Positions 9,070 to 36,929 of a stretch of DNA of 64,000 bases are shown piece by piece. The position numbers and the translations under genes were made by a program. The notes under the pieces are model-generated. The model made no database searches, had not been told where the DNA came from, and saw nothing but the letters and a program-made list of their open reading frames with translations. The first letter of the stretch is position 1; each line of letters opens with the position of its first letter. The DNA lies in assembly GCA_905116865.2 (NCBI GenBank), contig CAJHNH020002458.1:435402-499401 (forward strand). Direction: 5' to 3'. Source of the DNA: Candidula unifasciata. Taxonomy: Eukaryota; Mollusca; Gastropoda; Stylommatophora; Geomitridae.

Positions 9070-9155
9070 CCCTCCCGCCCCCCCCCCCATCCCAAAAAAA
9101 AAGAAAAAAAAAAGGGAAAAAAAAGAACAATTAAAAAAAAAAAAAAAAAAAAAAA

Positions 9156-15451: not shown

Positions 15452-15788
15452 CGTAGAGTTTGGGTTAGGGTTAGCGGTAGGGTTAGGGTTAGATGGGAAA
15501 ATTTTGACGTAGGAGTTCCAAATACTGGCCGACAATCTGATGCTTGTGGGAGTGGCACCAATGAAATTCTGCCAAATATGACGGCAATAGCGCGCGGCTG
15601 GTGCCCAATCGGTGGCGAATTGTCCGTAGCACCCACAGTCCGTCGACTGTTTGGGTGTGTATGTGACTGTGCGCGATTATAGGGAACTCCTGCGTCACAA
15701 TTGTCACATCTAACGCTAAACCTAACCCTACCCCTAACCCTATCCCTACCCCTAACCCTACCCTTAACCCTAACCCTACCCCTAACCA
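15452..15788. repeat. Inverted repeat with telomere-like arms
   Basis: The left arm has GGGTTAGGGTTAG repeats at about 15461-15492, the right arm has CCCTAACCC-type repeats at about 15712-15786. The homology continues inward: GATGGGAAAATTTTGACG and GTAGGAGTTCC on the left match the complement of the right arm at about 15683-15710. The telomere-like repeats are thus part of the inverted arms of a small element, about 337 bp, inside the long-TIR transposon. Confidence 0.8.
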
Positions 15789-19188: not shown

Positions 19189-19261
19189 ATGGCACTCATT
19201 TATGGTTTACTGTGTCTCCATGTTGTGGCTTCTCTTGACACTACTTTAGCGATGACCGTTG
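19189..19261 (+). CDS. Sushi gene exon 2: start codon and signal peptide
   Basis: The ATG at 19189 starts MALIYGLLCLHVVASLDTTL, a short N-terminus with a hydrophobic core and a small-residue cleavage region near TTLA. The exon ends after the first base of a codon (phase 1) at the donor G|GTAAGT. Phase 1 after a signal peptide is the usual entry point for shuffled extracellular modules. Confidence 0.88.
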
Positions 19262-22200
19262 GTAAGTTATTGTTTAATACATTAATAGTGAAAGTGTTAT
19301 AAATTGTCATGTTGCAGATGTAGTACAGAGATGTGTTAGTGTAACAGGCTTATTTATAAACATAAATATTATTAATATCAGAGCCTCTCAAAGTAAGATT
19401 GTATATATAATAAACAAACAGACATTGTATTGATCAGCACTTATAGAAAGACATAGAAGGATAGAAGGACACACTTGACAATATAAAAATCGAAAGCTAT
19501 AGTTACCATGCCGGGAATCAAACCTGTCACTTCCGGATGGTGTGTGTGCCTCGCTATGAAAACAAGTGTACTAAGAACATGACAAGCTAGGAAGGTGTCT
19601 TCATTGGCCATGTCTGTCTTACAGCCTGGAATCCACAACTGAGGAATATGGACATAATTCATCCCAAAGCATTGAAATGGCACCATAGGTTAGATAAAAA
19701 TGTATTTATATTAACCAATCATAGGTCGAATAACAAACACAGCAACAGTTAAAAGTATGAGTGTGACCTTTGGTTGGAGGTGGGAGCCATTGTTTTGTTT
19801 ATGTGTATGCAAATGTTTATTTGTACGTAAAAATTAAACCTCAGGACAGTAGAGATAGGAAACCATCAGATTCACTGAGAAGAGAATTAGTAACAAAGAT
19901 AAATAGTATGGTATGGACATGGAAGGAGTAGCAGGAGGTATGAACGAACGAACAAACAGACTTTCTTTTTAAAAGGTCACTACAGTAGAACCTCGCTTAA
20001 CAAGCACAATTCGTTCCAGAATCATACTCGTTAAGCGAAACACTCGTTATGCGAAACAGTTTTTCTCACATAAATTAATGTAAAATACGATAATGCGTTC
20101 CATGTCGAAAAAAAAAAAATACTCACGAAATTCTATGTATAACGTTTATTCAAAGAAAATTAATCATCTTTTCTTCAAACGCGGAACGAACCCACCTGGA
20201 ATGCGAATTCGATTTGCAGGGGAAAAAAACTCGAAATAATTATGTTACAAAGCTAAATATTTTTTTTTTACTAGAAAAGATGTCTAGAGACATTTGTTTT
20301 TGCCGACGCTTCAAAATTTGGCAAAAATGCGACACAGCATTATCATTAAATAAATTTGCAACGCGCATAGCCACTTCCTTATTAGGGTGATGCTTCTCAA
20401 TGGAATATGCAACAGTTTGCCATGCTTTCAGCATTTCTCTTATTTCGCCAAAAGATTGTTGCTTTTCCGTTACCTCCTCCTCCTCCTCTGACAAACGTTT
20501 CTCCAAAACTTCTTGCAGTGAAACACAATGCAACTCATTAAGCTTTTGGGTGGTCAGCTCTTGGCTGTGCTCTTCCTCAAGCTCTTCAATATCACTGTTA
20601 TCCACCTAAAATCCCCTGATAGGGGCCAAAGACACAATTTCGTTGACTACAGGTTCCACAGGTACTGTCACTGACACCTTAAAGTCACAAATCAACAACG
20701 CTCTCCGGCCAAAGCTTCTTCCAAACAGAAGTTAGGGTTCTCTTGGTAACTCCCTTCCCCGCCTTGTCGATCATCTTGAGGCAGGCAACGATGTGGAAGT
20801 GATTTTTCTAAAACTCTTTGAGATGTTTGCAGGCATCTTTCATTATGTTTATGTTGTCCGCTGGCATCTTTCATTATGTTTATGCTGTCTGCAGGCACCT
20901 TTCATTATGTTTATGCTGTCTGCAGGCATCCTTCATTATGTTTATTCTGTCTGCAGTTATATTTCATTATGTTTATGCTGTCTGCAGGCACCTTTCATTA
21001 TGTTTATGCTGTCTGCAGGCACCTTTCATTATGTTTATGCTGTCTGCAGGCATCCTTCATTATGTTTATTCTGTCTGCAGGCTTATTTCATTATGTTCAT
21101 GTTGTCTGCAGGCATCTTTCATTATGTTTATGCTGTCTGCAGGCATCTTTCATTATGTTTATGCTGTCTGCAGGCATCTTTCATTATGTTTATGCTGTCT
21201 GCAGGCATCTTTCATTATGTTTATGCTGTCTGCAATTACATTTCACTATGTTTTTGCTTTCTCTACAGGTATATTTCAGTGTCCTACACAGGCCCCACTG
21301 GAGAATGGTAACACTGTAGAGAACAAGCTGCCAACACACATGATGCATTACTCTTGCAAATTTGGCTATCATTTAGAAGGTCCACCCAAACAGGAGTGTG
21401 TTAATGGATCATGGACCCCTGCGGAGGCACCCTTCTGTGTTCCAGACAGTAATGAAGGTATTAGTTGTTTTTGTTTTTCATGTGTGTGCCATAAGGAGTT
21501 CATCACCTGGTCACTGCGCAGTCAGGTTTAACTAACTGAGCTAGCGAGCTGAGCTCTTATAATCATAGAGTGGTTAGTCTCCTCCTATCGCTACCTAATG
21601 GTCCCCCCCCCTCCCCCCCCCCGCCCAAAAATGGAGCCCCAGAACCCACATGTAGAGAGGGGGAAATTACAAGAAAATTATGTTTGTGTGCTATTTTCCC
21701 TGTTTTTGTTCCCCACAAGAAGACTGATTTGACATTAGATGAAATATTTTTCAATTGAGCAGATTTAATTTTTTTTGACTGTTTTTCTTTTCAGTTTCAT
21801 GCATTTCTGGCCCAGTAATTCTGAATGCTAGAGTGGAATACAACAACGGGGACTTCACATTTCCAAAGGTGCAGGGAAGTGTAGCTACCGTGCTGTGTGA
21901 GCATGGCTACTCAAGTGAAGACACATTCCAAACAAGTTACATCATCATGTGTGGTCTCAGTGGATTGTGGGCTTTGCCAGATGGTTCAATCCGTCTGCCA
22001 GCTTGTACAAGTGAGAGCACAGTTTTTTTTTTTACTTGTTTCAGTGGGCATTGGCACATGTCTGGATTTATTAAGGCAGTTTCATAATTTTGACATGCTG
22101 GGTGTTTGATTTGGCACCTGACCTTTTTGCATAAATTTTGACAACAGTATGAGCATCTGCAATAGCATTCTTCTTCTTCACTTCTTGTTTTGCCACTCAG

Positions 22201-25200
22201 AGTGTCAAGGGAGATATAAGTCTCTGCTTCTGCTCCTTTGGCTGCCTCAACCATATACACCTCATATTGTCGTAGAGTTTCTTTAGGAAATTGCTAAACA
22301 TAAAATTGCCTAGTAAAACCACTTGCAGCCAAATAAATTTGTGAGGTTGGTTTGTGACGTCCAGAAAGGATGTGCAACTAACTTTTGTTTTCCCCAACAT
22401 TCTCACAGGTCAGTTGCTGTTAAATTTATTTTATTTATTTTTTTACAAAGTGTTTGCATCTGTTTGAGTCAGGTTTTTGTAGAGCAGTGTTCCTGAACCG
22501 TTTTACATCTGCGGCCCATCAGAACATGGGGATTTGTTTCACGACCCACTTCATTGCTAATTAAACACAAAAACAAAATTGATGCCTTGGAAGTTGAATT
22601 AAGAATTCGACATCATAGCACTTGGGGAACTCACATAAGCGCTCAGTCCCCCATCTTCACCTTTTCCCCTGAGTGTTGAGCATTGGCCAGATCCCCTGGT
22701 AACTCCCTGCAGCTCCACTCTCGGGCTGTAATGATCCATTTGTGCCTCCGTACTGTTTACTAGCACCCAAAGGGCCCTCACAACATCTAGCTTGTCCTAC
22801 ATGAATTCACTACCATGGGGTGCAGAACTGGCTAGTCTGTCTTCCTGCTCATTTCCTAACACACCAGCATCACCTGGAGAAAATATCCAAAAGGCGCTAA
22901 CTACACGGGACCTTTGAAGCGAAAATTGACGCGTACAATGCCATGCTCGTTTGCAGGAATAATAAACCTGCTACATGAGTTACTATCGTTATTTCCTGCC
23001 AAGACTAGACTACGGGAGTCGCCATGGCCGAGCGGCTAGACGCTCATCGCGGATCGGAAGGTCGCGGGTTCGCTCCCAGGTCGATCCAGCCTTGAGTGGG
23101 TACCGGTGCAGTCCCGGGAAAGTAAAGGCGGCCGGCGTGATGCTGACCACATCACCCATCTTGTGCCGATTGGTCTATAAAAATATAGGTCTTGCCCTAT
23201 ATGCCCTATACGCCTAAAGGCGTGGAAAAGGGTCCTTTACTTTACTTTTTTATTTTTTAAGACTAGACTACAGGTTACATAACCATCAGGTGCGATATTA
23301 GTGTATTATTGTTTAAAAAATTTATTTTGTTTAAAAAAAAAACACACACACAATTTAAAAAACCCCCCATTGCTGCTGTATTTACTACTTTTGCAATGTA
23401 AGCAGAAGGGGCCTTCAGAAAATTTCGGGCCACAGGCTGTGTTAGGATTTCATTTTTGCCCCCAAAGAAAAAATCTGCAGTCTTACCGAGGATTCCAACC
23501 CAGGATTCCCCCTTGAGGACTCAGTATAAATAGCTTAAAGAAAAGGTGGATTTCTATAATTGTGCAGGGGTCTCAGGTCACCCAGCCTAAAATGAGTACC
23601 ATGAAATATCAAGGGAATTGAAGGCAGCCGTGGGATGTTGGCCACATTGTGACTACTGTGAAATAATTAGCATAATTCTATTTTCTGCAGGAAAGCACTG
23701 TCCTCCGCCTCCAGAGATCCCTAATGCTTTAGTTCATTATGATACCTACAACCTGCTGATGAGCGAGGGATTTCAGGTTGAGTACATTTGTTCTAGCGGA
23801 TACAGTCTCCTGGATACATCAAATGCTCGTCTCACCTGCCGGAACGGTCAGTGGGAAGGACCTGTTCCCACCTGTGGTACGTTGTTGTTTACTTCAACAG
23901 TAACTTTTTTTTTTTTTAAATTTCATGATATTTTGTTTTTTTCACAGAGACCACATCACAATTTACAAAGTTTGCAATAAAAATTACTGATCAGATAAAA
24001 CTAAGACTGGATCCCACAACTCGGACAGGTCTGCTGTGGGGAACCTAAGAGACCTCTGGCTGACATCCCAGTTTATGGCCCACAGTGGATTAAGCACATG
24101 ACCAGAGATCCCTGGAGAAGAAGAAGAAGAATAGCCTGTACTTTCCAGAACATTTCCTGGTACCCATTTTTAAGCTGAGCCAGCCTCAGAGCTGACAAGG
24201 TTTTTTTTTTTTTTTTTAATCAACACCTCATTAGATATTCAGACATTACAGATTTTCCATAAGCGAGCTTTGAGTTGAAATATTCCTCCGAAGTCGGAGT
24301 ACATCTGCCGGAGAGGCGGGGAACGAGTACAGCAAACAAATAAGCCAGTAAAACGGATGTACACGCAAAACTCAGGTCAAGGTAAAAGCCAAAAGTCCAT
24401 TTTGGACGAACAACCGTGACTTACCGCCGGAATTCACAGCCGGTGAACAAGAAGAAGAAGAAGAAAGAGTTGAAATATCAGACTAAAACATTGAATTTGG
24501 GCTTGAGTAAAGGGTGCAGATTTGCTGAATGACATCATGTGGGGTGCACAGATATTTAAACACATGACACCATTTCCAGTAGGCAAGCTTTGAGTTGAAA
24601 TATCAGACTAAATCATTGAATTTGGACTTCAGAAAAGGATACAGAGTTGTTGAACGACATCATGTGGGGTGCACCAGGACCACTGGTCAAGATTAATCTG
24701 CAGTCATCATAGAACATAAGTTCCAAGATGTTCGCTGGGCCAGTATAGATAGGATCAATATTTCTTTTGAGGTCAGAGTGCATCTGACTGAGAGGAACCA
24801 ACAATCTTTACAGAAATGAGTCAGATTTGCAATGCGCAATATTTAAGTCTTGGAACAAGGCCAAACTTTGCACAGAAGTTTACAGCCGGTGAACAGAACA
24901 CAGAGAAGAAGAAGATGTGTGGACATGTTGTTTCTGTGGAATATATCTATTGGATGTGTTAATTATTGCTGTGTTACCATTCATTTACCTATTGAAGGCT
25001 TGCAGTTGTCTCTTTCTTATAGTCCATCACATGTGGCATTAGTAGTCATGTCTACTCACAACCTTCTGCCTCATATGCTTTCAATCAATTCTGAAAGAGA
25101 TGATCTTCCCTGCCACAATGAACAATCTTCCAGCATCTTCTCTTTCAGTCTCCCTCTGCCTCTTTTCCCCTTCAGCTTTCACACCGTCATGATTTACTCT

Positions 25201-28200
25201 AGTTTTCTCCTTCTCATGATATGACCAGAGAATGTAGATTGTCTCATTCTGATGTGGGCAACCAGTTCTCTCTGTGAGTCAGTTTCTTTCAAACCATCTT
25301 CATTACTCTTTTTATCTGTTCAGGGTATTCCGATGAATAACATCTCCACTACTTGCAATTTTGTTTTCACTTTTAGCCCAATTATCCACGCTTCAATTCC
25401 ATATATAAAATATAAATATATAAAATCTTAAATGTATTCTAACGTTTAATATGTTGAATTACCTTGAGGGTCTTACCTTTCTTATGTTATCATATATTCT
25501 TTTAGTGTTAAAAGCTAACTGTGAGCCTCCTGCTTATGTTCGTAACGGCAACTGGAATCTGGTGGTGAAAACTGGTCGCGATATCACCTTTGAGCAGCAC
25601 GGAGACACACAGTACCCGAAATTTGAAGTGGGCACAGAGATCGAGTACAGCTGCAACCCCGGGTATAAACTGATTGGACACAGGGTGTTTGAATGTCTTC
25701 CTTCACAGATTTGGTCCAGCACTTCTCCGGAATGCATCCCAGAATCAGGTAAATATTGTGAGTAATTTGGTGCTTCGTAAGTATAGTCCTGTCAGTGTCG
25801 GTGATTGAGCTAAGTAATCTTTTTTCTTCTTCTTCTTCATTTGCCCTGAACTTTTTCAGAAATTCAGCAGTGTCTACAAGCTTTGGACAGAAGTCATATT
25901 AATAGCAGTTGAAATATAAGTGGTTAGCATAGCAGAAGAATTGGACATGAAAAGCGGAGGTGTTATTTTAGGAGTAGTAGAAATTTAAATGTTAACATAG
26001 TAGAAGAATCTGACATAAAACTGCGGAGAAGTCATTTTAGTAGTAGTAGAAATTTAAGTGTTAACATAGTAGAAGAATCTGACATAAAACTGCGGAGAAG
26101 TCATTTTAGTAGTAGTAGTAATAGTAGAAAAATAAGTGTTACTTAGCAGATGAATTAGACATGAAAAGTGAAGTTATTTTAGTAGCAGTTGAAATATAAG
26201 TTTTAACAAAGCAGAAAAATTGGTCATGAAAAACAGAGGTGTCATTGTAGTAGTAGTAGAAATAGAAGTGTTAACATAGCAGACAAATTGGACATAAAAA
26301 AGAAGAGAAATCATTTCAGTAGCAGTTGAAATACATTGCCAAATAGATGGACAAGAAAAGCAGAGAAGTCATTTTAGTAGCAGTTGAAAGACATTGCTGA
26401 ATAATTGGACAGGAAAAGCAGAGAAGTCATTTTAGTAGCAGTTAAAAGACATTGCCAAATAATTGGATATGAAAAGCAGAGATGTCATTTTAGTAGCAGC
26501 TGAAATTTAAGTGGTTAACATAGCAGAAGAATTGGAAAGGAAAAACAAAGAGTTGATAACAGGCAGATGTCATGTTGTGTTGGGTTTACAGCCAATCAGC
26601 AACATCCGATTTCAGCAAGCTCCTAATTGGTCACCTTTTATGACATGCTTGTTAAGGATAAGTTAGTCTGTCCTTTTCCTTCCAGAATGGTTCCTCAGAG
26701 CACATACCTTTGAAGGGCAGGCACAGAAGAAGGGGGATTTAACAACTATTAGAGCCAGAAAGTAAAAGGTTTTGACTCCGAAAAACATGGTTCTTGAAAA
26801 GAAATCTGCCCGTCACAAAATTGTTAATTGTCCTGCTGCTGAATTTTGGCTCTTTTGACTAATGAGTTTGCCGACCACTGTTCTAGGCTATGATGTGAGG
26901 CGGAGTTTTTTCCCCAGGCAATTCCCCTATCATTTTGGAAGTTATTTTTTATTGCATTGAGCAGATTAACAAAACTAGTTTAAGAGAACAGAAAGCTCAT
27001 GGTCGAAATAGAAACCCTTGTGTTCTCAGTACTCTTCTGTTCATTACTGAAACTTGGGCAAGAGAAATTGTTATACAGATTTCACCTGTGATGTCTGCGA
27101 CAAATACTTGGCATTAAGTGGCAGGACCAGATCACACACACTGAGTTATTGAAAAGAGCAGGGATTACAATAGTTTTCTCAGTATTCTCAATACACAGTG
27201 TTTGAAGGTTCAGATGGCTGGGACATACTTGAGGAGTGGAGGATGGCGTAGAGTCCATATGGGTGTCCTGTACAGTGAATTACAGATGGGCAGAAGATAT
27301 CATGTTTGGTCTCCACTGTGATATAAAGATGTGTGCAAGTGGTACATGAATGATGCCTATATTGAGGTAGATTCTTGGGACCAGGAAGCCACCTAGGGGA
27401 CAGGATGCCAATTAAAAATCAGGAAGGGAATGGGTATAAAGGAAAACATTATTGCAGAAGGGTTAAGAACTGTGTGTCTGAGAAGAATTATGTGAAATAC
27501 GATGGTGATCATGGCCCTGAGATACTGTGCTGTAATTCTTGAATTATTGAGTGAGTGAATGAGTTAAAAAATGACATCTCTGCACTCCGGACATTCCAAC
27601 ACGTGCTCCATCCCCTTCTTCAGTAGCCAACGAAGAGTTGGTATGCTAATGGTTTAAAAAAAAGTTAAAGCTGAGAGGATCGACTTCATTACACCAGGTT
27701 TTATCCTATATGGCTCGGTCTCTCTCCACAGAACGGATAGCTGCTTTCTGAGAGCATCGCACAGAGCACAGACTCCGTAGCTCCGACGATGATCCCCAGG
27801 GATCTCCTAAATGCTAATAGTACCAGTTGCAACCTGATTAAAAGTCCGCCTGTTTCCCCTTAATGTTGAATATCTTCCAGAACCTCTGCTCACCCCTTTT
27901 TGAGTTCAGATGTTACTTAACATGAGCAGGTCTTGCTTGTCACACGCTCCATGGGCTGTGAGTCTGTCTCCATTCAGTACAATGTGCCAGTGAAACTATC
28001 TGGTACTTGTTTTACATGTGAACTTCAGAGCCTTGTTGATTGGGAAAAAGTCTTACCACTTCTGGGGATCGGATTCTGACCACTCACTGTATTGAGAGGC
28101 AAGAACACTAACCACTATACCACTTCACCTCTTATATTAATATTCAACTTCTTCTGCTTCTACTTCTTCTGCGTTTCACTGTCATGTTGTGAAGAGGCAT

Positions 28201-31200
28201 CGGATGTGAGCTTGATTTATGCTATGTAGTTGCTGGTAATTATAGCTTTGGATATTCCATCTATCCATTGTCTGCGTGATCAACCTCTAGGTGTATTCCT
28301 ATTATGTCTAAGTGTCAGGGCTGTGTATGATGCACTATCTTGTAGTTTTCACACATGTCTAAACCATTTGATCTGTTGTCTCTTGATGTAGTTTAGAACT
28401 GGTTCTATACTATTAATATTAAAATGCCGTAAAATTTGAGCAAAGATTAAGAAAATGTATATGAGTGTGTGTACATTTTGTGTGTGTACATTTTATAAAC
28501 AAAAATGTTTATGTTCTCCAAACCTCTTCTCTTTTCCCACCCCTAACCCCCGCAAAATAATAGAAAACATCTGGTATTGTCCTGACATCGGCCAGATCAA
28601 AAATGGCTTCTGCAAGTGCATGGGCGAGGGCACGGCAGACCTACAACTATGCATGCCCTACCACAGAGGAACTCAAATCCAGTGCACATGTCTCCAGGGT
28701 TACAAGCTGCAGGGAGTAGACACTTTGACTTGCATCCATAGTTCCAACCCCAACATTGGAGTCTGGGACTGGGAGTCTCCCAGGTGTTACAAGGACTTTG
28801 GTCTGTAAATATATTCCTACACTACTCTTTGTATATTTGTGTGTAGCTTAGGCATTGTGAACATGATTAATAATTTTGAGGTACTGGTTAGATTCCAGCT
28901 GGAGACAAGAGTAATTTAGAAAGCAGTGGCAAACTACTGAACACAGAATTGCCTGATAAAAGCAAGACAATCAGCAGATACTGGGGTTTGTTCTGCAATA
29001 TCCTCTAAAGGATGTGCACTCAGCTAAACTCCTTTTTTAACTCATTTGCTACCAAGCAGCTCACCACGCATGTGTTGACTTTTACGTCTTCACAATCATT
29101 ATCGTGCACTTTGTATGCCAGTATGGTTCGCATTTTATTCTACCATTCTGCTGCCATATCCTGTGTAATTGTTTCAAAATGTGTACTTTTGGCCTCTCTT
29201 ATCAACGTTTGTCTTAGGATTTTTTTGGATGTTTCGTTTGTTCAGTACATTTGTTTCCCATTTAGGTCCCTGTTTGATAATTCTCTCTTTGTTTCTCTTC
29301 AGGATGTGCCCAATATAATCCCATCTTTATCCTAATACAGTTCATATCAGCAGTTTTCCAGAAATTTCTCTTACCTCTTTGTCTTTCTTGAATTCTTCCC
29401 ATTTAATATTCATCAATTTCCTTAGCATTTGTTTTCAAATGTATTTACATCTTGTTCCATGTCTTTAATTGTTCTTTAAGATTCACTAACATATGTTGAA
29501 ATAACATTAGAGCTGAAAATATATAACTTAGTTTCTCTGTATGGGTTCCTGAGTCCCATTGTGGGGAAAACAAAAATAAACCTACTCCCCCCCCCCCCCC
29601 CCCCCCTTCCCTCCGACAAGCATGTCATAAGAGTCAACTAATTAGGAGCTTCCTTCAAAGTCGGAGTGCATCTGCCTGAGAGGCAAGGAACCAACAGTCT
29701 GCATACAAATTAGCAAGATCTGCAAAGCGGATGCACACACAGAACTTAGGTCCTGGAACCAAGCCAAAGTCCAGAAATGGATGAACAGCCAGGTCTTTCT
29801 GCCGGGGTTTTCAGCTGGTGAATGTAAACATAACTTGGTTTTAAAAGTATATAATTTACAGTTTCACAGTTTGTTCAGGCTGTTACAAGCTGCAGTGTAT
29901 ATCATAATTTCTTTCATTATGTTCTCTATGACTTTGTTTTGGGGGGGGGGGGGGAGTGCTACGGGTTGCCAGGTATTGGCAGTACCTTTGGTGTTGGGAG
30001 CATGTCATGTCCTTTTCAGGACAGCATACCTGTTTTAAAATAGCCAAAATATCTCCGATTTTGAGGCATGATGCTGTTCTTCTAGATGTTCAGATCATTT
30101 CACTTCAAGTAAAAGCTTTTGGGAGACATTGGGTTCAGTTATATCTGCCTGGTACCGAAGGAGTTAAAATATATTTTTTTCTGTCTATTGTCAGTTTTTA
30201 AATTTAAAAAAAAAATGTTTTTGATTTGGGTAAATGTTTTTCTTTTTTACCTTCAGTGATGTTGGCACATTGTGTTTTTGTGGTTTACAACTTTGTTGTG
30301 ATATCAGTGCCTTTTGGTTCAAGACATCTGATTTAAGTAAACCCTTAATAAGTCACATTTTACAACATGTTTGTTGAGGGGCAGTGTGTCTACTATCTCT
30401 TCCTCTCTCCCCCAGTAGGACCTGCTTAGTACTTTGCCTCTGCTTTCTGAACACTTCAGTGGTCACACCATTGTCAAAATTAATGAAAATTTGTCTGCTA
30501 TTAAATTGCTTCCAGTTGTCTTTGAACCTTGGTATATCAGGGTTGTGAAACTGCATTTATCACCCTTAAGCCACAAATGCCAAAAAAAAAATTATATTTT
30601 TTGTAAATTAAAAAAATATATCTTAGAGATTTCTGTGTCCTTTTTGTAACTCATAAGTTGCCAGTGCCACTTCCAGTATAGAAGTGGACTATTCCACATC
30701 AACCATTGTTTTTCTGATTGTATAACTGCTTTCCCCAATCTTTATTTCTTCTTCTTCGTCCTTCACCGGCTGTGAATTCCGGCAGAAGGTCCCGGTATTT
30801 TGTCCATTTGGACTTTCGGCTTTTACCTGGACCTGAGTGTTGCGTGTACATCCGTTTTACTGGCTTATTGTTTGCCGTTCCCTGCCTCACCGGCAGATGT
30901 ACTCTTAGTCTCTAACTTCGAGGGAATGAAGAACTGATTACCTACATCAGTATGAAGCATTCTACATTTTTTAGTGCACCTTATCGGAAGGGAAAAAACT
31001 GGAGTATGTTGTTAGAGGTGGAAAGTTGCAGAAGAAAACCAAAAGCGAAGATTATTGATTTAATGGCATAGAAGAATATACATGTTTGGAATGACTGATA
31101 CTACAAAAGACAGACAGCTGTGGATAGAAATGATTACCAGTTACCAACATCACATGACATGGATTTTACAAGGAAGGAACTTACCCTTCGTAAAGTAAAG

Positions 31201-34200
31201 ATCCCTTTTTTACGCCTTTGGCGCATCGGGCATATGGGAAGAGCACCCTATATTTTTACAGACCAATCAGCACTACCCCGGCAGTCCTTCACAAAGCATT
31301 GTATTAATTACGTCTGCAATTTTGCTTCATAATTAGTCTATAGTTGATCAACTCTCATGAATAATTTGCTTCCTCTCAGACCCTGGCAGCGATATAGACT
31401 TGCTACCTGATGGACAGAATGGTGGAAAGTCGTTCAATTCTGGGGACATAAATGATGGCAAGAACAAGGTGGGCTGTTCTTTGTTGTGTATGATGCATAA
31501 CACATTTTTTTTAAACTGTTAATCTGTAGAGTTTATAACATTGCCAGTCAGAGGGAAGAAATCTGGAATCTGGTTTACAGTTGCGACCCTGCCTGACAAA
31601 CTATGGGATGTTGGTGAAGACCTCTGGTGCACTGTCCTATTTTGTCACTGATGCTGGAATAGAGTAGCTAATGTTGATCGCTGGAGAAATTCGTTTTTAA
31701 CAGTTATTTATTCATACTCACCAGCAACAATAAGTGTCAGTTTTTCAGAACATAAATAGCAAGTATTTTTAACTCTTGTCTTCTTCTTTACATTTACCAG
31801 CCGTAAAGGCCAGCAGAAAGTTCTGGTTGTTTGCCCACTTCTGGACTTTGATTTTTTTCCAGGACTTGAGTTTGCCTGCACATCTATTTTAATGATCTGG
31901 CATATGTGTATGCAGACTGTTGGTTCCCCACTTCCCAGGCAGATGCACCCCAACTTCAAAGGAAACACCTGTAATTAGTCACCTTTTATGCCATGCTTCT
32001 TAGGGAGCAGCGGGTCTTTTTTTTTTGTCGCCAAAATCTGGCGCCAGAACCCGGACATGGAGCCAAATTATTGCATGACTTTCAGAGAGGCCAAAATATA
32101 GTTCCGGAGTTGTGATTAGGGTAAATGTTTATTAAGTAAGTAAAATAAATAAAGATCCCTGTTCACGCCTTAAGGCGCATTGGGCAAATGGAAAGAGCAT
32201 CCCATATTTTTTATAGACCAATCGGCACTAGGTGGGTAATGTGGTCAGCATTATGGTGGCTGTCTTTACTTATCCAGGGCATATATCCTGGTACCCTTTT
32301 TAGGCTAGGCCGACCTGTGACGCCCCATACCATGATAAAAATCCACACAGCCAGCAGTGGGTTTCGATCGCTGTACGTGTCGGACTGGCAACACCTAAGC
32401 CACGGGTGCTGCTTTTATATACTATTTTTATATTTAAGATTTTATAATTAACTTTGGCTGCCAGTTTGGCCCAGCTTAAAATGAGTACAAGGAAGTGTCC
32501 TGGGATGTAAAGTTGCTTGGCATAATGTTGACCACATAACCATTGAGTGATGATTGGTCTGTAAAATGTCAATCTAGGACTATATGCTCATTGTGCGACT
32601 TGAGTAAAAAAGGTCCTTCTGCTTTCTTACCATTTTATAAAAGATATCCCCCGTGTGGGTTCCGGGGCCCCATTGTGGGGAAAACAAGAATAGACCCACT
32701 CCCTCCCCAAAAGCATGTCGTAAGAGTCGACTAATTGGAGAGCTTCTTTTGAAGTCGGAGTGCATCTGCCGGAGAGGCAAGGAGCCAACAGTCTGTATTC
32801 AAGATAATGAGATCTGTAAAACTGATGCACACGCAACACTCGGGTTCTGGAGCAGGACTGCAGTTCAGTAGTGGACGAGCAACCAGTACTTTCCGCCAGA
32901 GTGTACAGCTGGTGAACGCAAAGAAGATGAAGATAGAAGATATACCTGGATTTTCAGTCAGCGAGCATAATTTAAACTTTGGGATACTTGGATGACGGTA
33001 ACTTGAGGGGGAAATAACCACTGCAGAATATCATTGATGTCAGTCAGGTGAAAGGTGTAAGCTAAAGTTGAGAATATCGACTTCATTGTTATCACATTTG
33101 GCTTGGTATCTCTCTGCAGAGCTGCAAGCCACCAGCCAGAAAAGTTGCACAGAGCACGAACTCCAAAGTTCCAGCATTAATCCCCAGGGATCTCTGTAAA
33201 AATTGCACTCATGAACTAAATGACACATCCGTGAAAGGAACCCATGACCTTCAGAGCACTAGACAAATAGCTTGACCACTACGCCGCAGCATCATGGTGT
33301 TTTAGGGCACAGAATCTTACCACTTTTGAAGATTCACCCAGATCACATTTGTAGTAAGCTAGGACACTAACCGATATGTCACCAGGACTCACAAAGAATC
33401 GGATACGTTACATATTGATAATTGTTTGACTTCATCCAGGTGTCATCTTTGGTGATTGTAGTGACCACTGCTTGTAGTGTTCTTGGAGTGCTACTTCTCA
33501 TCATGGTTATTGTAGTATTTCGGAGAAAAAAGCCACGGGCTCATCTCTTCCAGCAAGGACCAGCCCCTCCGCCCTATGCTCGAGTGCACGACAATTCATT
33601 GGGTAAGACTGTCGATTTTTTGTAGTTCTTTTTCTTCTTTTGTCAATATCTGCTTTGTGTCGCAAGTGTTACAGTTTAACAAAGGATGGATGGCCAGGCT
33701 AGGGTGCACTCGGTTGCTTGGTATGCTGGGATGTTTTGAGGTCTTAGGTTCTTCTGAGCTCCCTCCACTTCGATGTTTCAATTTTTATGTTGTACACACT
33801 ACTGGGGGAGCCTCCGTGATCTAGTGGCTAGAGGCTCGCCTGCAGATCAGAAGGTCATGGGTTCAGTTCCTAATAAGAGCCGGATGTTTTTCAAAAATAA
33901 CCTTGGCTCCCAGGTCAACTCAGCCATGAGTAAGTACCAGGTGCAGTCCTAGGAAGTAGAGGCGGCCGGCGTGATGCTGACCACATCACCCACCAAGTGC
34001 TGTTTGTTCTATTTAATATAGGTCTAGCCCTATATACCCAATAAGCCTGAAAGGTGTGGAAAAGGTTCCTTTTACTTGTATACTCACTACTGGCGTTGCT
34101 GGATTCATTCTCAGGGGTGTTTGAACCATTTCAATCTCAGTTTCACAGTGAATTTAAGAGCGGTTATTGTTCTAATAAATAGTTCTTCAGATTAAATGGT

Positions 34201-36929
34201 TTGAACATGTGTCAAGACTCCACCAGATAAGTGCACCACTGAGAGCCCTGTCACTTAGATGTACTAGAAGCAGACCTAGAGATCGACCACCTGAGCGGTG
34301 AACTGCTGGAATACCCATAACTGTAAACACCAGCATCAACATAGCACATACCAAGGCTCGTACCCCATGTCTCTACAAAACTGGACTCTGAAAGGCAGAA
34401 TAGGACTACAGAAAAAAAAACCAAGATTTAAATTTATATCATATATTAGTATTACATATTTTCATATCCCCCCTTTTAAAAAACTAGTGTATCATATATT
34501 TCTTTCCTAAATCAGATGAGCATGATAGAATGGCATTAATGGCTTATGCAGACGCATCACGGATACACCTTCCTTCCTATGAAGAATCAGTCAGGTCGTT
34601 GAGCAGCCTAGGAAGCAACACACCACCAGGAGGGTCAGTGGCTGGCCCAGGTTCAAGTCCCACAACATCCGAGTACCGAAGACTGCCGAACGTGCCTCCA
34701 GCTATTCGAGCAGCCAACCTGCAACACAGTGTTGGGGGAGACGGCAACAACAACATTAACCACAGCAACCGGCATTCAACTGTTACCACCAGTACCATGA
34801 ACAGGGATGGGGTATCGGAAATATTTGGTTCTCTGGACACAGTAAATGTCAGCATGAGTGATGCTTCAACATCTGTGACAGTAGAGACATTTGATTCAGG
34901 GGTGTCTAACAGATCGATGGCTTCCCAGAGGGCAGCAGCTGGGAGCCTCAACTCTTCTGATGATCACATAGCTAGTGATGGTGAGTCAAACGCATTTTTA
35001 TGTGGTTCTTTTTTGTTTTTGTTTCTTGAATATGCCTCCTGATGATCACATAATTATTGATGGTTAGTCATAACATATTTTGTGTGTACGTGCATGCGTG
35101 CGTGTGCATGCATGCGCACATTTTTGTGTGAGTCGTACACATTTTCTTTTTGTTTAATTTTATTTTTCACGATGCCTCCTTGTGATCACATAATTATTGA
35201 TGCTGATTCATACACATTTTTAATTTAACAATGTCCGTTGGTGTTCACCTAGCTATTGATGGTGCCGCATACTCATTTGACATTTTTTGGGGGGATCAGA
35301 AAGCTAGTGATGTGAGGCATACTTATTTTAATATTTGTTGTTCAGATGTTGTCAAGTAGGAGTTACTATTAAACTATGGCCAAAAAAAGCAACAACAAAA
35401 AATTCCATTTACTTTTTGTGTTTGCCTCTTTTGTGGGGAGGGGTGGGGGGTGTCTTTGAACCTGAGGATTTAGGGGAGGGGTGGGGGGTGTTTTTGAACC
35501 TGAGGATTTAGGGGAGGGGTGGGGGGTGTCTTTGAACCTGAGGATTTAGGGGAGGGGTGGGGGGTGTCTTTGAACCTGAGGATTTAGGGGAGGGGTGGGG
35601 TGTCTTTGAACCTGAGGATTTAGGGGAGGGGTGGGGGGTGTCTTTGAACCTGAGGATTTAGGGGAGGGGTGGGGGGTGTCTTTGAACCTGAGGATTTAGG
35701 GGAGGGGTGGGGGGTGTCTTTGAACCTGAGGATTTAGGGCTGCATGACTAGGACAGTCGCCATTCACTCTGCGGGGTGTTTTTGTTGTTTGTTGGGGTTC
35801 CCAACAACAACAAACAAACACAAAAATATCCACGTTACAGAGGATTCAGACCTGGGTCTCCCACGTGGAAGCTCTGTTAACTATTCTGCCAGCTGCTTCC
35901 CAGATTATGTTATTTACAGAACCAAGCCCACCATTTTTTGGCTGTTGTAGTTTTTCTAGGTAGATTTGACGTTCAGTAGTTTGCTATTGCTTCCTGAAAG
36001 TCAGCTCTCAGTACTACTGTCAAAACCAACGCAAGACAAATCTGATTTCTGATGCTGGGATCAAACCTGGCATTAGGGAAGCACGTTCGATACGCCTAAG
36101 CTATCCACGCCTCAGGATACACAAAGACTTTTTGGGTGTTCTACCCCTGCTCCCTCCTCTATCTTTCTGTCTGACCCCTTTTCTACCCGTCTTTCTTTCT
36201 CATTCTTTAACTTTTCTCCTTTTCTTTCTTGGTACTTCCTCTATCTTTGTATTTTCACTTTACATTCGTTCTGTGAATTTTGATATGTCAACATAACACG
36301 CTTGATATATAAAGTACAATTGCTGTATGAAAGATTAATGCTTAAAAGGGCAGAATGTAAGACGGGCCTGTATGCCCAAATTGTAACCCAATGGAAAAAA
36401 AGTTAATTCATTATTTAGTTTGTTCTCCCTCCTCTTAGTCGCTAAGAGTTCATATGAAGTACACTGCCTATGAGTCGCTGTGGTGTAGCGGCTAGATGCT
36501 CGCCTGCAAATTAGAAGGTCGTGGATTTGGGTTCTGATGGAACCGGGCTTTCTACAAAAATGACCTTGGCTCCCAGGTCGACGCAGCCTTGCCTGGGTAC
36601 CAGGTGCAGCTCTGGGAGGTAAAGGATGCCAGCATGATGTTGACCACATCATCCACCAATTGCCGATTGGTCTATAAAATATAAGTCTAGCCCTACATGC
36701 CCAATACACCTGTAGGCGTGGAAAAGGATCCTTTCCTTTACTTTACTTTACTTTACTTTACTTTACTTTACTTTACTTTACTTTACTTACACAAGCCTGT
36801 ACAAATGTTTACATTTTCTGGTGTTTTCTCTCAACAGATGCTCCACTTCTGGATTCCAACTCCCAGAGAGAAGTGGATGTTGTCAGTGTTAGTTCCAACC
36901 CAAGTCGGTCCAGCAAGGATGACCAGTAG
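19189..36929 (+). CDS. Sushi-domain type I membrane protein, SUSD4-like (10 coding exons)
   Basis: Joined exons 19189-19261, 21269-21457, 21795-22010, 23691-23876, 25506-25748, 28564-28800, 31380-31468, 33440-33602, 34516-34980 and 36838-36929 give 650 residues with consistent phases and GT-AG introns. Residues 1-24 are a signal peptide. Sushi (CCP) modules span about 29-81, 90-158, 163-221, 227-298 and 308-377. A stalk follows, then a transmembrane helix at about 415-438 and an RRKK stop-transfer. The cytoplasmic tail holds PPPY (454-457) and LPSY (484-487). Known: sushi modules bind proteins outside the cell; PPxY and LPxY bind WW domains of NEDD4-family ubiquitin ligases, as shown for SUSD4 and SUSD6. 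Inferred: an adaptor that brings surface partners to ubiquitin-dependent turnover. Orthology to SUSD4 (four sushi modules in vertebrates) is unproven. Confidence 0.9.
19411..19720 (-). repeat. SINE family J
   Basis: On the minus strand the repeat contains GGTTTGATTCCCGGCATGG, a box B-like tRNA element. It also has the pieces TAGCGAGGCACACAC and GACATGGCCAATGAAGACAC. A better-preserved + strand copy is at 53985-54250. It lies in intron 2 of the sushi gene. Confidence 0.7.
19983..20820 (-). mobile_element. Tigger/pogo transposon relic (3' half)
   Basis: The left edge CAGTAGAACCTCGCTTAACA after TA (19981-19982), with CTCGTTAAGCGAAACACTCG, is the characteristic Tigger terminus. On the minus strand the transposase tail reads KKLWPERC at about 20695, then EELEEEHSQELTTQKLNEL and HHPNKEVAMRVANLFND, then SHFCQILKRRQKQMSLDIF (20605-20240). 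The region encoding ACLKMIDKAGKGVTKRTLTS is also visible. The 5' half with the DNA-binding and DDE core is missing; the sequence stops where the 31-bp array begins. It is dead. Confidence 0.88.
20823..21262. repeat. 31-bp minisatellite made of iterated 3' splice-site sequence
   Basis: About 14 copies of a unit TTCATTATGTTTATGCTGTC + TGCAGGCATCT repeat at a strict 31-bp period; CAG trinucleotides end at 20832, 20894 and then every 31 bp to 21204. The array runs directly into the acceptor of the first sushi exon. The unit aligns with that acceptor and with the first exonic bases (CAGGCATCTTTCA versus CAGGTATATTTCA). The reading frame of the sushi exon is open across the entire array. Confidence 0.92.
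21269..21457 (+). CDS. Sushi gene exon 3: CCP module 1
   Basis: The exon encodes 63 codons in phase 1-1, a complete sushi module. Cysteines are C29, C54, C68 and C81, with the conserved tryptophan W73 (VNGSWTP). The acceptor is TTTCTCTACAG and the donor G|GTATTA. A 31-bp array of acceptor look-alikes sits just upstream. Confidence 0.92.
21480..21680 (-). repeat. SINE fragment (family K) with family A head
   Basis: TCACCTGGTCACTGCGCAGTC followed by AGGTTTAACTAACTGAGCTA resembles the tRNA-like segment at 51770-51830. A C-rich tract and AGCCCCAGAACCCACATG, a family A-like end, follow. It is intronic and decayed. Confidence 0.45.
21795..22010 (+). CDS. Sushi gene exon 4: CCP module 2
   Basis: The exon encodes 72 codons, phase 1-1. 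Cysteines C90, C122, C140 and C158 and tryptophan W146 follow the sushi pattern. The acceptor is TTTTCTTTTCAG, the donor A|GTGAGA. Confidence 0.92.
22140..22300 (-). repeat. LINE 3' end fragment
   Basis: Minus-strand translation includes VEAAKGAEAETYISLDTLSG, which parallels VEAARRARNRTLYLPRHPQR at the end of the LINE at 6198. Only the last part of the ORF and its junction are present. It is intronic. Confidence 0.65.
22483..22560 (+). repeat. hAT (Charlie-like) terminal fragment
   Basis: CAGTGTTCCTGAACCGTTTT followed by ACATCTGCGGCCCATC has the form of a Charlie-type hAT terminus (CAGTGGTTCTCAACC...GCGGCCC). No partner end was found. Confidence 0.5.
22590..22800 (-). repeat. SINE family H copy, partial
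   Basis: The copy has ATCATAGCACTTGGGGAACT, CATAAGCGCTCAGTC and CCTGGTAACTCCCTGCAG. On the minus strand it carries the GCGCTTATG...TATGATGTC tail domain. It is intronic. Confidence 0.6.
23014..23258 (+). mobile_element. SINE family B, full-length copy
   Basis: A tRNA-like head has box A (TGGCCGAGCGGCTAGACG) and box B (GGTCGCGGGTTCGCTCCC). The body contains GGCGTGATGCTGACCACATC and CCGATTGGTCTATAAA, and the tail is CCTTTACTTTAC. The perfect 13-bp duplication AAGACTAGACTAC flanks it (23001-23013 and 23259-23271). This is the best-preserved reference copy of family B here. Confidence 0.92.
23440..23535 (-). repeat. SINE family I fragment (tRNA-like head)
   Basis: TCTTACCGAGGATTCCAACC followed by CAGGATTCCCCC is the antisense of a tRNA-like box B region. 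Copies with the same layout are at 35715-35915, 61345-61505 and 63575-63735. Confidence 0.6.
23565..23665 (+). repeat. SINE family B fragment next to exon 5
   Basis: GGTCACCCAGCCTAAAATGA, GAAGGCAGCCGTGGGATGTT and GGCCACATTGTGA correspond to the body of family B, decayed. It ends only about 25 bp before the acceptor of the third sushi exon. Confidence 0.55.
23691..23876 (+). CDS. Sushi gene exon 5: CCP module 3
   Basis: The exon encodes 62 codons, phase 1-1. Cysteines are C163, C193, C209 and C221, tryptophan W214 (RNGQWEGPVPTC). This is the most canonical of the five modules. The acceptor is TTTTCTGCAG, the donor G|GTACGT. Confidence 0.94.
24010..24130. repeat. Dispersed repeat of unknown type
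   Basis: AACCTAAGAGACCTCTGGCT and GACATCCCAGTTTATGGCCC resemble 10910-10990. An AAGAAGAAGAAG end suggests a retroposon tail. The family is not identified. Confidence 0.4.
24255..24470 (+). repeat. Family A retroposon, 3' part
   Basis: GAAGTCGGAGTACATCTGCC, then ACGGATGTACACGCAAAACT and GAATTCACAGCCGGTGAAC, end in (GAA)n. The head is missing. It is intronic and followed by a second copy at 24680. Confidence 0.8.
24680..24915 (+). repeat. Family A retroposon, diverged copy
   Basis: GAGGTCAGAGTGCATCTGAC, CAGAAATGAGTCAGATTTGC and GTTTACAGCCGGTGAACAGA end in an AGAAGAAGAAG tail. The sequence between this and the preceding copy (24470-24660) is partly duplicated: TTTGAGTTGAAATATCAGAC occurs twice. 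Confidence 0.75.
25020..25445 (-). pseudogene. LINE reverse transcriptase tail, decayed
   Basis: On the minus strand, pieces read YGIEAWIIG-like (25405 downwards), then GHVMRRRKLE and KRGRGRLKEKMLEDCSLW. This is the same LINE group as 18095-18370. Stops interrupt it. It is intronic and antisense to the sushi gene. Confidence 0.75.
25506..25748 (+). CDS. Sushi gene exon 6: CCP module 4
   Basis: The exon encodes 81 codons, phase 1-1. Cysteines are C227, C271, C285 and C298, tryptophan W291. The module has a long first loop of 43 residues between the first two cysteines, longer than usual. The acceptor is TATTCTTTTAG, the donor G|GTAAAT. Confidence 0.92.
25895..26545. repeat. Diverged tandem repeat, about 67-bp unit
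   Basis: Units contain GAAGTCATTTTAGTAGTAGT, AGCAGTTGAAATATAAG and GTTAACATAGCAGAAGAATT. Two neighbouring units at about 25985-26110 are nearly identical; others have lost segments, so the spacing varies. It is intronic. Confidence 0.85.
26565..26730 (-). repeat. Family A fragment
   Basis: AGCTCCTAATTGGTCACCTT followed by TTATGACATGCTTGTTAAGG is the head-proximal part of family A in antisense orientation, diverged. Confidence 0.5.
26740..26886 (-). repeat. hAT (Charlie-like) terminal fragment
   Basis: The complement of 26830-26886 reads CAGTGGTCGGCAAACTCATT then AGTCAAAAGAGCCAAAA, a well-known form of Charlie-type hAT terminus. The opposite end was not found, so size and integrity are unknown. 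Confidence 0.65.
26890..27540. other. No recognisable feature (intron 6)
   Basis: AT-rich intronic sequence without family signatures. Confidence 0.35.
27545..28135 (-). repeat. SINE family H, with tRNA-like head
   Basis: The right end on the minus strand reads GTGGTATAGTGGTTAGTGTT and GGTCAGAATCCGATCCC, a tRNA-like box A and box B. The left part contains GCACTCCGGACATTCCAACA and the body CATCGCACAGAGCACAGACT. It is long and may hold another insertion. It is intronic. Confidence 0.6.
28150..28440 (-). pseudogene. LINE reverse transcriptase tail, decayed
   Basis: The minus strand reads IEPVLNYIKRQQIKWFRH, matching EPILDYIQRQQVKWFAH at 6198-6596. It is antisense to the sushi gene and intronic. 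Confidence 0.75.
28564..28800 (+). CDS. Sushi gene exon 7: atypical CCP module 5 with eight cysteines
   Basis: The exon encodes 79 codons, phase 1-1. Cysteines are C308, C319, C321, C332, C343, C345, C359 and C377, with tryptophans W370 and W372. The frame CP...G..NG...C.C..GY.L.G...L.C...W..PRC is sushi-like, but four extra cysteines imply two added disulfides or a different fold. The acceptor AATAATAG has a pyrimidine tract set back by about 15 bases; the donor is G|GTCTGT. Confidence 0.85.
28805..29540. other. No recognisable feature (intron 7)
   Basis: AT-rich intronic sequence. The 29000-29470 part, read on the minus strand, may be decayed LINE, but no diagnostic motif is clear. Confidence 0.35.
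29545..29835 (+). mobile_element. Family A retroposon, near full length
   Basis: The head GTATGGGTTCCTGAGTCCCA and GTGGGGAAAACAAAAATAAA are followed by a C homopolymer of about 20 bases, then AAGCATGTCATAAGAGTCAA and AGTCGGAGTGCATCTGCCTG, and finally TTCAGCTGGTGAA. It is intronic. Confidence 0.8.
29836..30740. other. No recognisable gene (intron 7)
   Basis: The stretch is AT-rich with a G run at 29940-29954. A short family A-like piece (GTCACATTTTACAACATG) lies near 30352. Confidence 0.35.
30744..30910 (-). repeat. Family A retroposon, 3' part
   Basis: TTCTTCTTCTTCGTCCTTCA and CCGGCTGTGAATTCCGGCAG are followed by TGCGTGTACATCCGTTTTAC and CTCACCGGCAGATGTACTC. The copy is truncated at its head. 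Confidence 0.8.
31190..31285 (-). repeat. SINE family B fragment
   Basis: AAAGTAAAGATCCCTTTTTT, CGCATCGGGCATATGGGAAG and ACAGACCAATCAGCACTA are the 3' end of family B in antisense. Confidence 0.75.
31380..31468 (+). CDS. Sushi gene exon 8: stalk
   Basis: This short exon encodes residues 382-411, rich in G, D, N and S (DLLPDGQNGGKSFNSGDIND), a flexible linker between the last extracellular module and the membrane. The acceptor is GCTTCCTCTCAG. The exon ends in phase 0 at AAG|GTGGGC, where the phase pattern changes from the module-bearing exons. Confidence 0.85.
31785..32065 (-). mobile_element. Family A retroposon, near full length
   Basis: CTTCTTCTTTACATTTACCA, GAAAGTTCTGGTTGTTTGCC, GGTTCCCCACTTCCCAGGCA and CGCCAGAACCCGGACATG are in family A order. 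Confidence 0.75.
32136..32410 (-). repeat. SINE family B copy, antisense
   Basis: AAAGATCCCTGTTCACGCCT leads through GACCAATCGGCACTAGGTGG and GTAATGTGGTCAGCATTATG to a tRNA-like antisense end (GTGGGTTTCGATCGCTGTAC, CTAAGCCACGGGTGCTGC). The head is of a different tRNA-like type from the copy at 23014. Confidence 0.7.
32455..32620 (+). repeat. SINE family B fragment, sense
   Basis: GTTTGGCCCAGCTTAAAATG, GAAGTGTCCTGGGATGTAAA and GTTGACCACATAACCATTGA, GATTGGTCTGTAAAATGTCA follow the body of family B. Confidence 0.65.
32640..32935 (+). mobile_element. Family A retroposon, full length
   Basis: The head CCCCGTGTGGGTTCCGGGGC is followed by AAGCATGTCGTAAGAGTCGA, AGTCGGAGTGCATCTGCCGG, GTAAAACTGATGCACACGCA and CAGCTGGTGAACGCAAAGAA. 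It is the best reference copy of this family in the window and is intronic. Confidence 0.85.
33050..33295 (-). repeat. SINE family H copy with tRNA-like head
   Basis: The minus strand opens with CTGCGGCGTAGTGGTCAAGC and GGTCATGGGTTCCTTTCAC, a tRNA-like head. The body includes GGAGTTCGTGCTCTGTGC. It is intronic. Confidence 0.7.
33440..33602 (+). CDS. Sushi gene exon 9: transmembrane helix and PPPY motif
   Basis: The exon starts in phase 0 and encodes residues 412-465. A run of 24 hydrophobic residues (about 415-438, rich in V, I and L) is followed by RRKK, the cytoplasmic flank expected for a type I protein. PAPPPYARV at about 452-460 supplies a PPxY motif that binds WW domains. The acceptor is CTTCATCCAG, the donor G|GTAAGA. 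Confidence 0.92.
33806..34080 (+). mobile_element. SINE family B, full-length copy
   Basis: The tRNA-like head has TCCGTGATCTAGTGGCTAGA and GGTCATGGGTTCAGTTCC. The body has GGCGGCCGGCGTGATGCTGA. It is flanked by TACACACTACTGG (33793-33805) and TACTCACTACTGG (34081-34093), a duplication with one mismatch. Confidence 0.9.
34170..34400 (+). pseudogene. LINE reverse transcriptase tail, sense orientation
   Basis: The + strand reads LQIKWFEHVSRLHQISAPLR and RSRPRDRPPERWTAGIPI, the same tail type as the other LINE remnants. It is one of only two sense-strand copies in the window. Confidence 0.7.
34516..34980 (+). CDS. Sushi gene exon 10: cytoplasmic tail with LPSY motif
   Basis: The exon encodes residues 466-620, phase 1-1. 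It opens with DEHDRMALMAYADASRIHLP then SYEES, giving an LPxY motif about 30 residues after PPPY; paired PY motifs raise affinity for NEDD4-type ligases in known proteins. The remainder is serine-, threonine-, asparagine- and glycine-rich, predicted disordered, with many possible phosphorylation sites. The donor is G|GTGAGT. Confidence 0.92.
35430..35740. repeat. 38-bp G-rich minisatellite, about 8 copies
   Basis: The unit is GAGGATTTAGGGGAGGGGTG + GGGGGTGTCTTTGAACCT. Some units are shortened in the G run. The last unit continues into TTTAGGGCTGCATGACTAGG, the body of a family I SINE, so the unit includes SINE-derived sequence (GAACCTGAGGATTTAGGG). Confidence 0.93.
35715..35915 (-). repeat. 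SINE family I copy
   Basis: CTGAGGATTTAGGGCTGCAT, CAGTCGCCATTCACTCTGCG and GGATTCAGACCTGGGTCTCC (antisense box B) share order with 61345-61505. It is intronic. Confidence 0.7.
35920..36115 (-). repeat. SINE family C copy
   Basis: GCCCACCATTTTTTGGCTGT, TGACGTTCAGTAGTTTGCTA and CTCAGTACTACTGTCAAAAC are followed by GGGATCAAACCTGGCATTAG, an antisense box B. Copies lie at 38158-38335 and 47420-47660. Confidence 0.75.
36472..36790 (+). mobile_element. SINE family B with long (ACTTT)n tail
   Basis: The tRNA-like head is GTCGCTGTGGTGTAGCGGCT and GAAGGTCGTGGATTTGGGTT. The tail is about ten copies of CTTTA (36735-36787). It ends about 50 bp before the acceptor of the last coding exon. Confidence 0.88.
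36838..36929 (+). CDS. Sushi gene exon 11: C-terminus and stop
   Basis: The exon encodes residues 621-650 (DAPLLDSNSQREVDVVSVSS, then NPSRSSKDDQ) and ends at TAG 36927-36929. The acceptor is TTTTCTCTCAACAG. An acidic, serine-rich C-terminal end without a PDZ-binding pattern. Confidence 0.9.

What the first reader, a model, noticed from the sequence alone, without database searches (positions are those of the whole stretch)
20823..21268. Minisatellite of iterated 3' splice sites directly before the first sushi exon
About 14 units of 31 bp end at the real acceptor. Each unit resembles that acceptor plus the first exon bases: TTTATGCTGTCTGCAG|GCAT against TTTTTGCTTTCTCTACAG|GTAT. Twelve units keep CAG. 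Three of these CAGs (ending 20956, 21049 and 21142) are in frame with the sushi exon, and that frame is open across the whole array, so their use would add 104, 73 or 42 mostly hydrophobic, cysteine-rich residues after the signal peptide. Because 31 is not a multiple of three, the other CAGs would shift the frame. A copy-number-variable tract of decoy acceptors could set isoform ratios, or it may be silent.
Basis: partly seen in the sequence, partly recalled or inferred. Interest (0 to 1): 0.75.

Follow-up and report, generated by a model that had tools for sequence, protein, structure and literature searches.

The report
Repeated splice-site minisatellite in snail gene
In a land-snail gene for a membrane protein, the end of an intron together with the first few bases of the next exon has been copied over and over into a short repeat array, a kind of accident known from lancelets ("mirages") that probably does little harm to splicing, and the same gene carries a second, more decayed one at another exon edge.

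Summary
A 31-bp minisatellite (14.2 copies, 20824-21262) runs into the exon 2 acceptor of a sushi membrane-protein gene, by protein likeness from a land snail (Bradybaena, 87%). Each unit copies that acceptor plus about 10 exon bases: the commonest unit matches the exon start at 8 of 10 positions and the best at 9, against 1 and 0 of 2310 other CAGs. Twelve CAGs remain, three in frame. The open frame is weak evidence: 31 is not a multiple of 3, so all three frames read the same stop-free unit, as would about 18% of random 31-mers. It is a "mirage" minisatellite, a kind described in amphioxus. A second, degenerate one sits at the exon 9 donor of the same gene. Two of 18 exon boundaries have local copies, against 15-17% of random points here, so ordinary tandem duplication suffices (small sample). 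Most likely it arose by slippage between direct repeats flanking the acceptor, and the real acceptor (best of eight scored, 62-nt AG-free tract) is used; nine of 12 decoys would give a premature stop. One protein search for the array peptide found nothing. The decoys score well enough that some use is possible; RNA was not available, so the isoform idea is untested.

The parts
20824..21262 (+). 31-bp minisatellite array, 14.2 copies; each unit resembles the exon 2 acceptor plus the first ~10 exon bases
21236..21268 (+). terminal 33-nt unit holding the real acceptor (TTTTTGCTTTCTCTACAG); branch-point-like TTTCAC, its A 23 nt before the last base of the AG (motif recalled, position from the sequence)
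21269..21278 (+). first exon 2 bases GTATATTTCA, shared with the units (unit 5: 9 of 10; commonest unit 8 of 10)
20957..20987 (+). unit 5 (TTATATTTCA...), closest of the 14 to the exon start; follows the first in-frame CAG (20956)
20954..20956 (+). in-frame decoy CAG, +104 residues
21047..21049 (+). in-frame decoy CAG, +73 residues
21140..21142 (+). in-frame decoy CAG, +42 residues
21205..21266 (+). 62-nt AG-free tract before the real AG; includes the CAA at 21233-21235 where other units have CAG
19189..19261 (+). exon 1 coding part (signal-peptide-like by eye), donor G|GTAAGT
21269..21457 (+). exon 2, first sushi domain
21795..36929 (+). remaining coding exons of the gene: 21795-22010, 23691-23876, 25506-25748, 28564-28800, 31380-31468, 33440-33602, 34516-34980, 36838-36929
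19983..20822 (-). truncated Tigger/pogo-type transposon fragment; its protein homology ends at the array start
34954..35000 (+). exon 9 donor boundary, source of a second mirage
35036..35081 (+). mirage copy of the exon 9 donor (83%), keeps GT
35176..35222 (+). mirage copy of the exon 9 donor (79%), GT lost
35239..35278 (+). mirage copy of the exon 9 donor (78%, E 0.002), keeps GT
35296..35330 (+). possible fourth degenerate copy of the exon 9 donor, GT lost (by eye and alignment; not in the BLAST list)

Best explanation
The array is a mirage minisatellite: a tandem duplication of an intron/exon boundary. Shown: the last copy (ACATTTCACTATGTTTTTGCTTTCTCTACAG|GTATATTTCAG) carries a short direct repeat (ACATTTCA / ATATTTCA) on either side of the acceptor, and the units correspond to the 31-33 nt between such repeats. 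Inferred: replication slippage or unequal exchange between these repeats made the first copies, and later duplications spread unit variants, in a genome region rich in tandem duplications. Inferred: the authentic acceptor is used nearly always, because its score is best, the unit before it has lost its AG, and decoys would lengthen the first sushi exon; rare decoy use would mostly (9 of 12 sites) give a stop in exon 2, at most a small loss of expression.
For: Exon-start match of the commonest unit 8/10 and of unit 5 9/10; of 2310 background CAGs 1 reaches 8 and none 9. Ten places in the array align across the boundary with 76-82% identity over 68-70 columns. Junction position the same in the Bradybaena gene model, from an annotation that used BRAKER3 with RNA-seq (PMC12042801, passages). 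Real acceptor scores 8.22, highest of the eight acceptors scored; nine of 12 decoys 4.58-4.66 (recalled matrix). AG-free tract 62 nt, second longest of nine. Nine of 12 decoys give a stop at 21309 or 21317. A second boundary of the same gene, the exon 9 donor, has copies too, and its exon part is coding and conserved (SSDDHIASD here, SSDDQIASD in P0001, SSDDQLATD in P0002), so there the exon is the source. Boundary capture is not above background: 2 of 18 boundaries, 246 of 1590 random points.
Against: Decoys are not poor: the typical score of 4.66 is in the top 2% of 3995 AGs and above four of the gene's seven other scored acceptors, and one decoy (21080) reaches 6.36; each unit has a TTTCAT branch-point-like motif about 21 nt before its AG, so some use is plausible. 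In an ungapped scan the exon 2 acceptor's best local match is 22 of 30, hardly above the 20 of 30 of the exon 3 acceptor; the case rests on the gapped alignments and the exon-start match. No RNA data, no intron DNA of relatives and no second allele were available (own-genome search unanswered in 11 tries). The scoring matrix was recalled, vertebrate-like, not trained on molluscs. Units are related, so their exon match is one event, not many.
Confidence: 0.75

Rival explanations
1. The array acts as a length-variable splicing rheostat: decoy acceptors compete with the real one, lowering productive mRNA or adding 31-residue steps to the protein's N-terminus.
For: Decoy scores lie within the range of the gene's real acceptors; three in-frame decoys with an open frame; a human donor-side VNTR does change splicing with length (ABCA7 intron 18, PMC5954066, passages).
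Against: No protein with the array peptide in one search (454 candidates, none at E<=0.001; limited to proteins of similar length that share short words); 9 of 12 decoys out of frame; amphioxus mirages reported not to disturb regular splicing; the insert is hydrophobic and cysteine-rich, unpromising between a signal peptide and a sushi domain (inference).
Confidence: 0.12
2. The array is an ordinary intronic minisatellite that happens to end near the acceptor; the likeness to acceptor and exon is chance.
For: The window is full of tandem repeats (56 TRF rows, some overlapping), and 15% of random points have local copies.
Against: The likeness runs through the acceptor into the exon; exon-start match 8/10 for the commonest unit and 9/10 for the best, against 1 and 0 of 2310 CAGs.
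Confidence: 0.06
3. The unit comes from the neighbouring Tigger transposon, which ends where the array begins.
For: The transposon homology ends at about 20822, directly before the array.
Against: All eight relatives that I fetched (of 61 listed) read like NLTLREFWK at the break and share nothing by eye with the array-side residues DACKH of our fragment.
Confidence: 0.04

Closest known systems
Amphioxus mirage minisatellites (Adh3, globins BflGb6 and BflGb9, TnC, PGBD5; PMC3087553 and PMC3902484, passages read)
   Same: Minisatellite-like tandem duplications across an intron/exon boundary; BflGb6 likewise copies the 3' end of an intron plus the 5' part of the exon; splice signals kept in many copies; acceptor and donor boundaries both affected, as here at exons 2 and 9.
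   Different: Snail instead of cephalochordate; unit 31 bp (reported 10-72 bp in Adh3, 150-160 bp in BflGb6, 157 bp in BflGb9); length instability and splicing not tested here.
Human F7 intron 7 (IVS7) 37-bp repeats (PMC6627357, passage read)
   Same: Repeated splice sites at an exon edge, with only one of them used in normal condition.
   Different: Donor (5') sites; human; the most upstream site is used, whereas here the authentic acceptor is the most downstream.
Human ABCA7 intron 18 VNTR, 25-bp unit (PMC5954066, passages read)
   Same: VNTR that includes the splice site of the adjoining exon; retention of one unit gives a frameshift.
   Different: Donor side; up to about 427 units; length shown to go with exon 19 skipping and lower expression, untested here.
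Internal tandem repeats in human genes of segmental duplications (PMC2812944, passages read)
   Same: Some variable repeats lie at exon-intron boundaries and are proposed to create introns.
   Different: Human paralogues; the passages do not describe a unit that copies the splice site itself.

Membership tests
Mirage minisatellite | Tandem, minisatellite-like copies | tested here: met
   TRF period 31, 14.2 copies
Mirage minisatellite | Unit spans an intron/exon boundary and contains both intron and exon sequence | tested here: met
   Alignments running through 21268|21269 to 21278 at ten places; exon-start match 8/10 and 9/10 against 1 and 0 of 2310 CAGs
Mirage minisatellite | Many but not all copies keep AG/GT signals | tested here: met
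   CAG in 12 array positions, lost in two
Mirage minisatellite | Regular splicing not disturbed | not testable with these tools
   No RNA data; only the Bradybaena gene model
Mirage minisatellite | Length instability between haplotypes | not tested
   Own-genome search unanswered in 11 tries; no second allele
Splice-affecting VNTR (F7, ABCA7 type) | Repeat includes the authentic splice site of the adjoining exon | tested here: met
   Acceptor instead of donor
Splice-affecting VNTR (F7, ABCA7 type) | Repeat number changes splicing or expression | not testable with these tools
   Needs RNA and several alleles

The most novel reading that the evidence does not exclude
A copy-number-variable stack of acceptor modules, each with its own branch-point-like motif and AG, that tunes how much functional sushi receptor is made and now and then adds 31-residue hydrophobic steps after the signal peptide.
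Probability: 0.07. Interest if true: 0.7.

Novelty: new member of a known kind. Interest (0 to 1): 0.4.

Why it matters
In the listings of my paper searches (some lists were cut) structures called mirages appear only in amphioxus, with donor-side or boundary repeats known in a few human genes. A snail gene with two of them suggests a by-product of tandem duplication in any repeat-rich genome rather than a cephalochordate peculiarity. The rate seen here (2 of 18 boundaries, random 15-17%) makes that testable genome-wide. Such arrays are also natural tests of how the spliceosome picks one acceptor among a dozen near-copies, and a suggested route to new introns (PMC3087553).

Tried and rejected
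Transposon origin of the unit: judged unlikely, the homology of the Tigger fragment stops before the array. Selection for an open reading frame: rejected as evidence, all three frames are open and about 18% of random units would be. Array unit elsewhere in the window: none, all 12 matches with up to 3 mismatches lie in the array. Protein with the array peptide: none at E<=0.001 among 454 candidates. Special attraction of tandem duplication to exon edges: not supported, 2 of 18 boundaries against 246 of 1590 points (low-complexity filter off, so the random rate includes simple repeats; 18 boundaries are few). Recursive-splice-site idea (AG|GT in each unit): rejected, none of the 12 array CAGs is followed by GT, only the real acceptor is. 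Pfam finds nothing above its cut-off in the array peptide. A higher-order period: only a marginal maximum at lag 124 (0.925 against 0.919 at lag 31). Papers opened but not used in the argument: PMC3778950 and PMC10946897 (passages).

Full report
What the window is. It is an animal genome, by protein likeness a stylommatophoran land snail (inference). The best match to the gene product is a Bradybaena similaris protein (P0001, 87% identity, 97% of the query), followed among named hits by Aplysia, Biomphalaria, Bulinus and Physella (38 proteins at E<=0.001 of 6498 candidates). Ten coding exons (19189-36929) give one uninterrupted ORF of 650 residues with Sushi domains (PF00084, four stretches) and a hydrophobic, transmembrane-like segment (by eye). 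Some sources name relatives 'sushi domain-containing protein 4-like', others CUB and sushi, complement receptor or SVEP1-like.

The observation. TRF reports the array at 20824-21262, period 31, 14.2 copies. Splitting at the conserved core gives 13 units of 31 nt and a last one of 33 nt that ends at the acceptor. The unit occurs nowhere else in the window at up to 3 mismatches.

Why it is a copy of the boundary. After the AG the exon reads GTATATTTCA. The commonest unit has GCATCTTTCA (8 of 10), unit 5, the best of 14, TTATATTTCA (9 of 10). Of 2310 other CAGs on both strands of the window, one reaches 8 and none 9. BLAST aligns 21209/21211-21278, through the acceptor and into the exon, with ten places in the array at 76-82% identity. 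An ungapped 30-mer scan is less telling, 22 of 30 here against 20 of 30 for the T-rich exon 3 acceptor, because the last unit is 2 nt longer. Units 5, 9 and 14 share ATTTCA with the exon where the others have C, which suggests that the exon form is ancestral; this is an inference, helped by the Phe-Gln that Bradybaena keeps there. The last unit carries ACATTTCA about 33 nt before the ATATTTCA of the exon, a direct repeat of the sort that lets slippage start a minisatellite (mechanism recalled, not tested).

The frame argument. Because 31 is not a multiple of three, a stop-free unit leaves all three frames open, and it does (ORFs 20736-21311, 20812-21531 and 20822-21319). In shuffles of the unit 17.7% are stop-free, and 18.0% of 31-mers sampled from the window. 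The open frame is one mildly unlikely event and no sign of coding use.

Which acceptor is used. With a recalled vertebrate-like matrix the real acceptor scores 8.22, the best of the eight scored of the gene's nine acceptors (exon 7 was left out); the other seven range from -6.75 to 7.67. Nine of 12 decoys score 4.58-4.66, the others 0.57, 3.57 and 6.36. Against the silent reading: a score of 4.66 beats four of the seven other real acceptors. For it: the real site has 62 nt free of AG upstream, second longest of nine (the exon 7 coordinate was one base off there), because the unit before it has CAA for CAG; exon 2 would grow from 189 to 253-625 nt; nine decoys lead to a stop at 21309 or 21317 in exon 2; and the Bradybaena model joins MTV-G-VFQCP at the same place. 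That annotation was made by BRAKER3 with RNA-seq (PMC12042801, passages), though I saw no reads for this junction, and the model begins at that internal Met. No protein with the array peptide was found (454 candidates; the search sees only proteins of similar length that share short words).

A second mirage. Comparing all ten exons with 60 nt on each side against the window showed local copies at two boundaries only: this acceptor and the exon 9 donor (E<=0.01). The latter, 34954-35000, recurs at 35036-35081 (83%), 35176-35222 (79%) and 35239-35278 (78%), with a possible fourth copy near 35296-35330. GT is kept in two of these four. The copied exon part codes for SSDDHIASD, conserved in P0001 and P0002, so here the exon is the source. 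Use of the first decoy donor would end the protein after 640 residues with a changed tail.

Is it special? Apparently not. Taking 120-nt pieces at 1590 points every 40 nt, 246 (15.5%) have a local copy spanning the middle, 74 of 444 (16.7%) within the gene; for the 18 boundaries it is 2 (11%) (exon 7 boundaries 1-2 bases and the exon 6 donor 4 bases off the final model; simple repeats not filtered). With 18 boundaries the comparison is coarse, but there is no sign that exon edges are hit more often than other DNA.

The flank. A minus-strand Tigger/pogo-type fragment begins with its terminal repeat at 19983 and its protein homology ends at about 20822, where the array starts; the best relative is 72% identical over 96% of the query. 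How the junction formed is open.

Comparison with the literature. [quoted passage not shown] PMC3902484, passage). Human donor-side parallels are the 37-bp repeats of F7 intron 7, where only the most upstream donor is used (PMC6627357, passage), and the ABCA7 intron 18 VNTR, whose length goes with exon 19 skipping (PMC5954066, passages). Boundary repeats that may create introns are also reported in human duplicated genes (PMC2812944, passages). None of the listings showed a mirage outside amphioxus under that name; three lists were cut (20 of 64, 20 of 24, 25 of 31), and the library lacks most subscription journals.

Verdict. A real, well-read observation with a mostly ordinary explanation: a new member of a known kind, in a mollusc, with a second example in the same gene. 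The functional claim stays open and is easily tested with RNA reads.

Noticed in passing
34954-35330: Second, degenerate boundary duplication (mirage) at the exon 9 donor of the same gene.
   Followed up: yes
19983-20822 (minus strand): Truncated Tigger/pogo-type transposon whose homology stops where the array begins; the named relatives are mostly from a termite and a spider.
   Followed up: partly
36731-36788: CTTTA pentamer array (11.6 copies) about 50 bp before the exon 10 acceptor.
   Followed up: no
15454-15492 and 15710-15787: Degenerate telomere-like hexamer arrays in opposite orientation (TRF units TAGGGT and CTAACC, 78-80% matches); no two perfect TTAGGG or CCCTAA units in a row were found.
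   Followed up: partly
7807-9072: Large GC-rich 26-27-bp minisatellite, about 49 copies, with a 234-bp higher-order period.
   Followed up: no
28552-28564: Exon 6 acceptor (GCAAAATAATAG) scores very low (-6.75) yet its position is fixed by the conserved protein.
   Followed up: no
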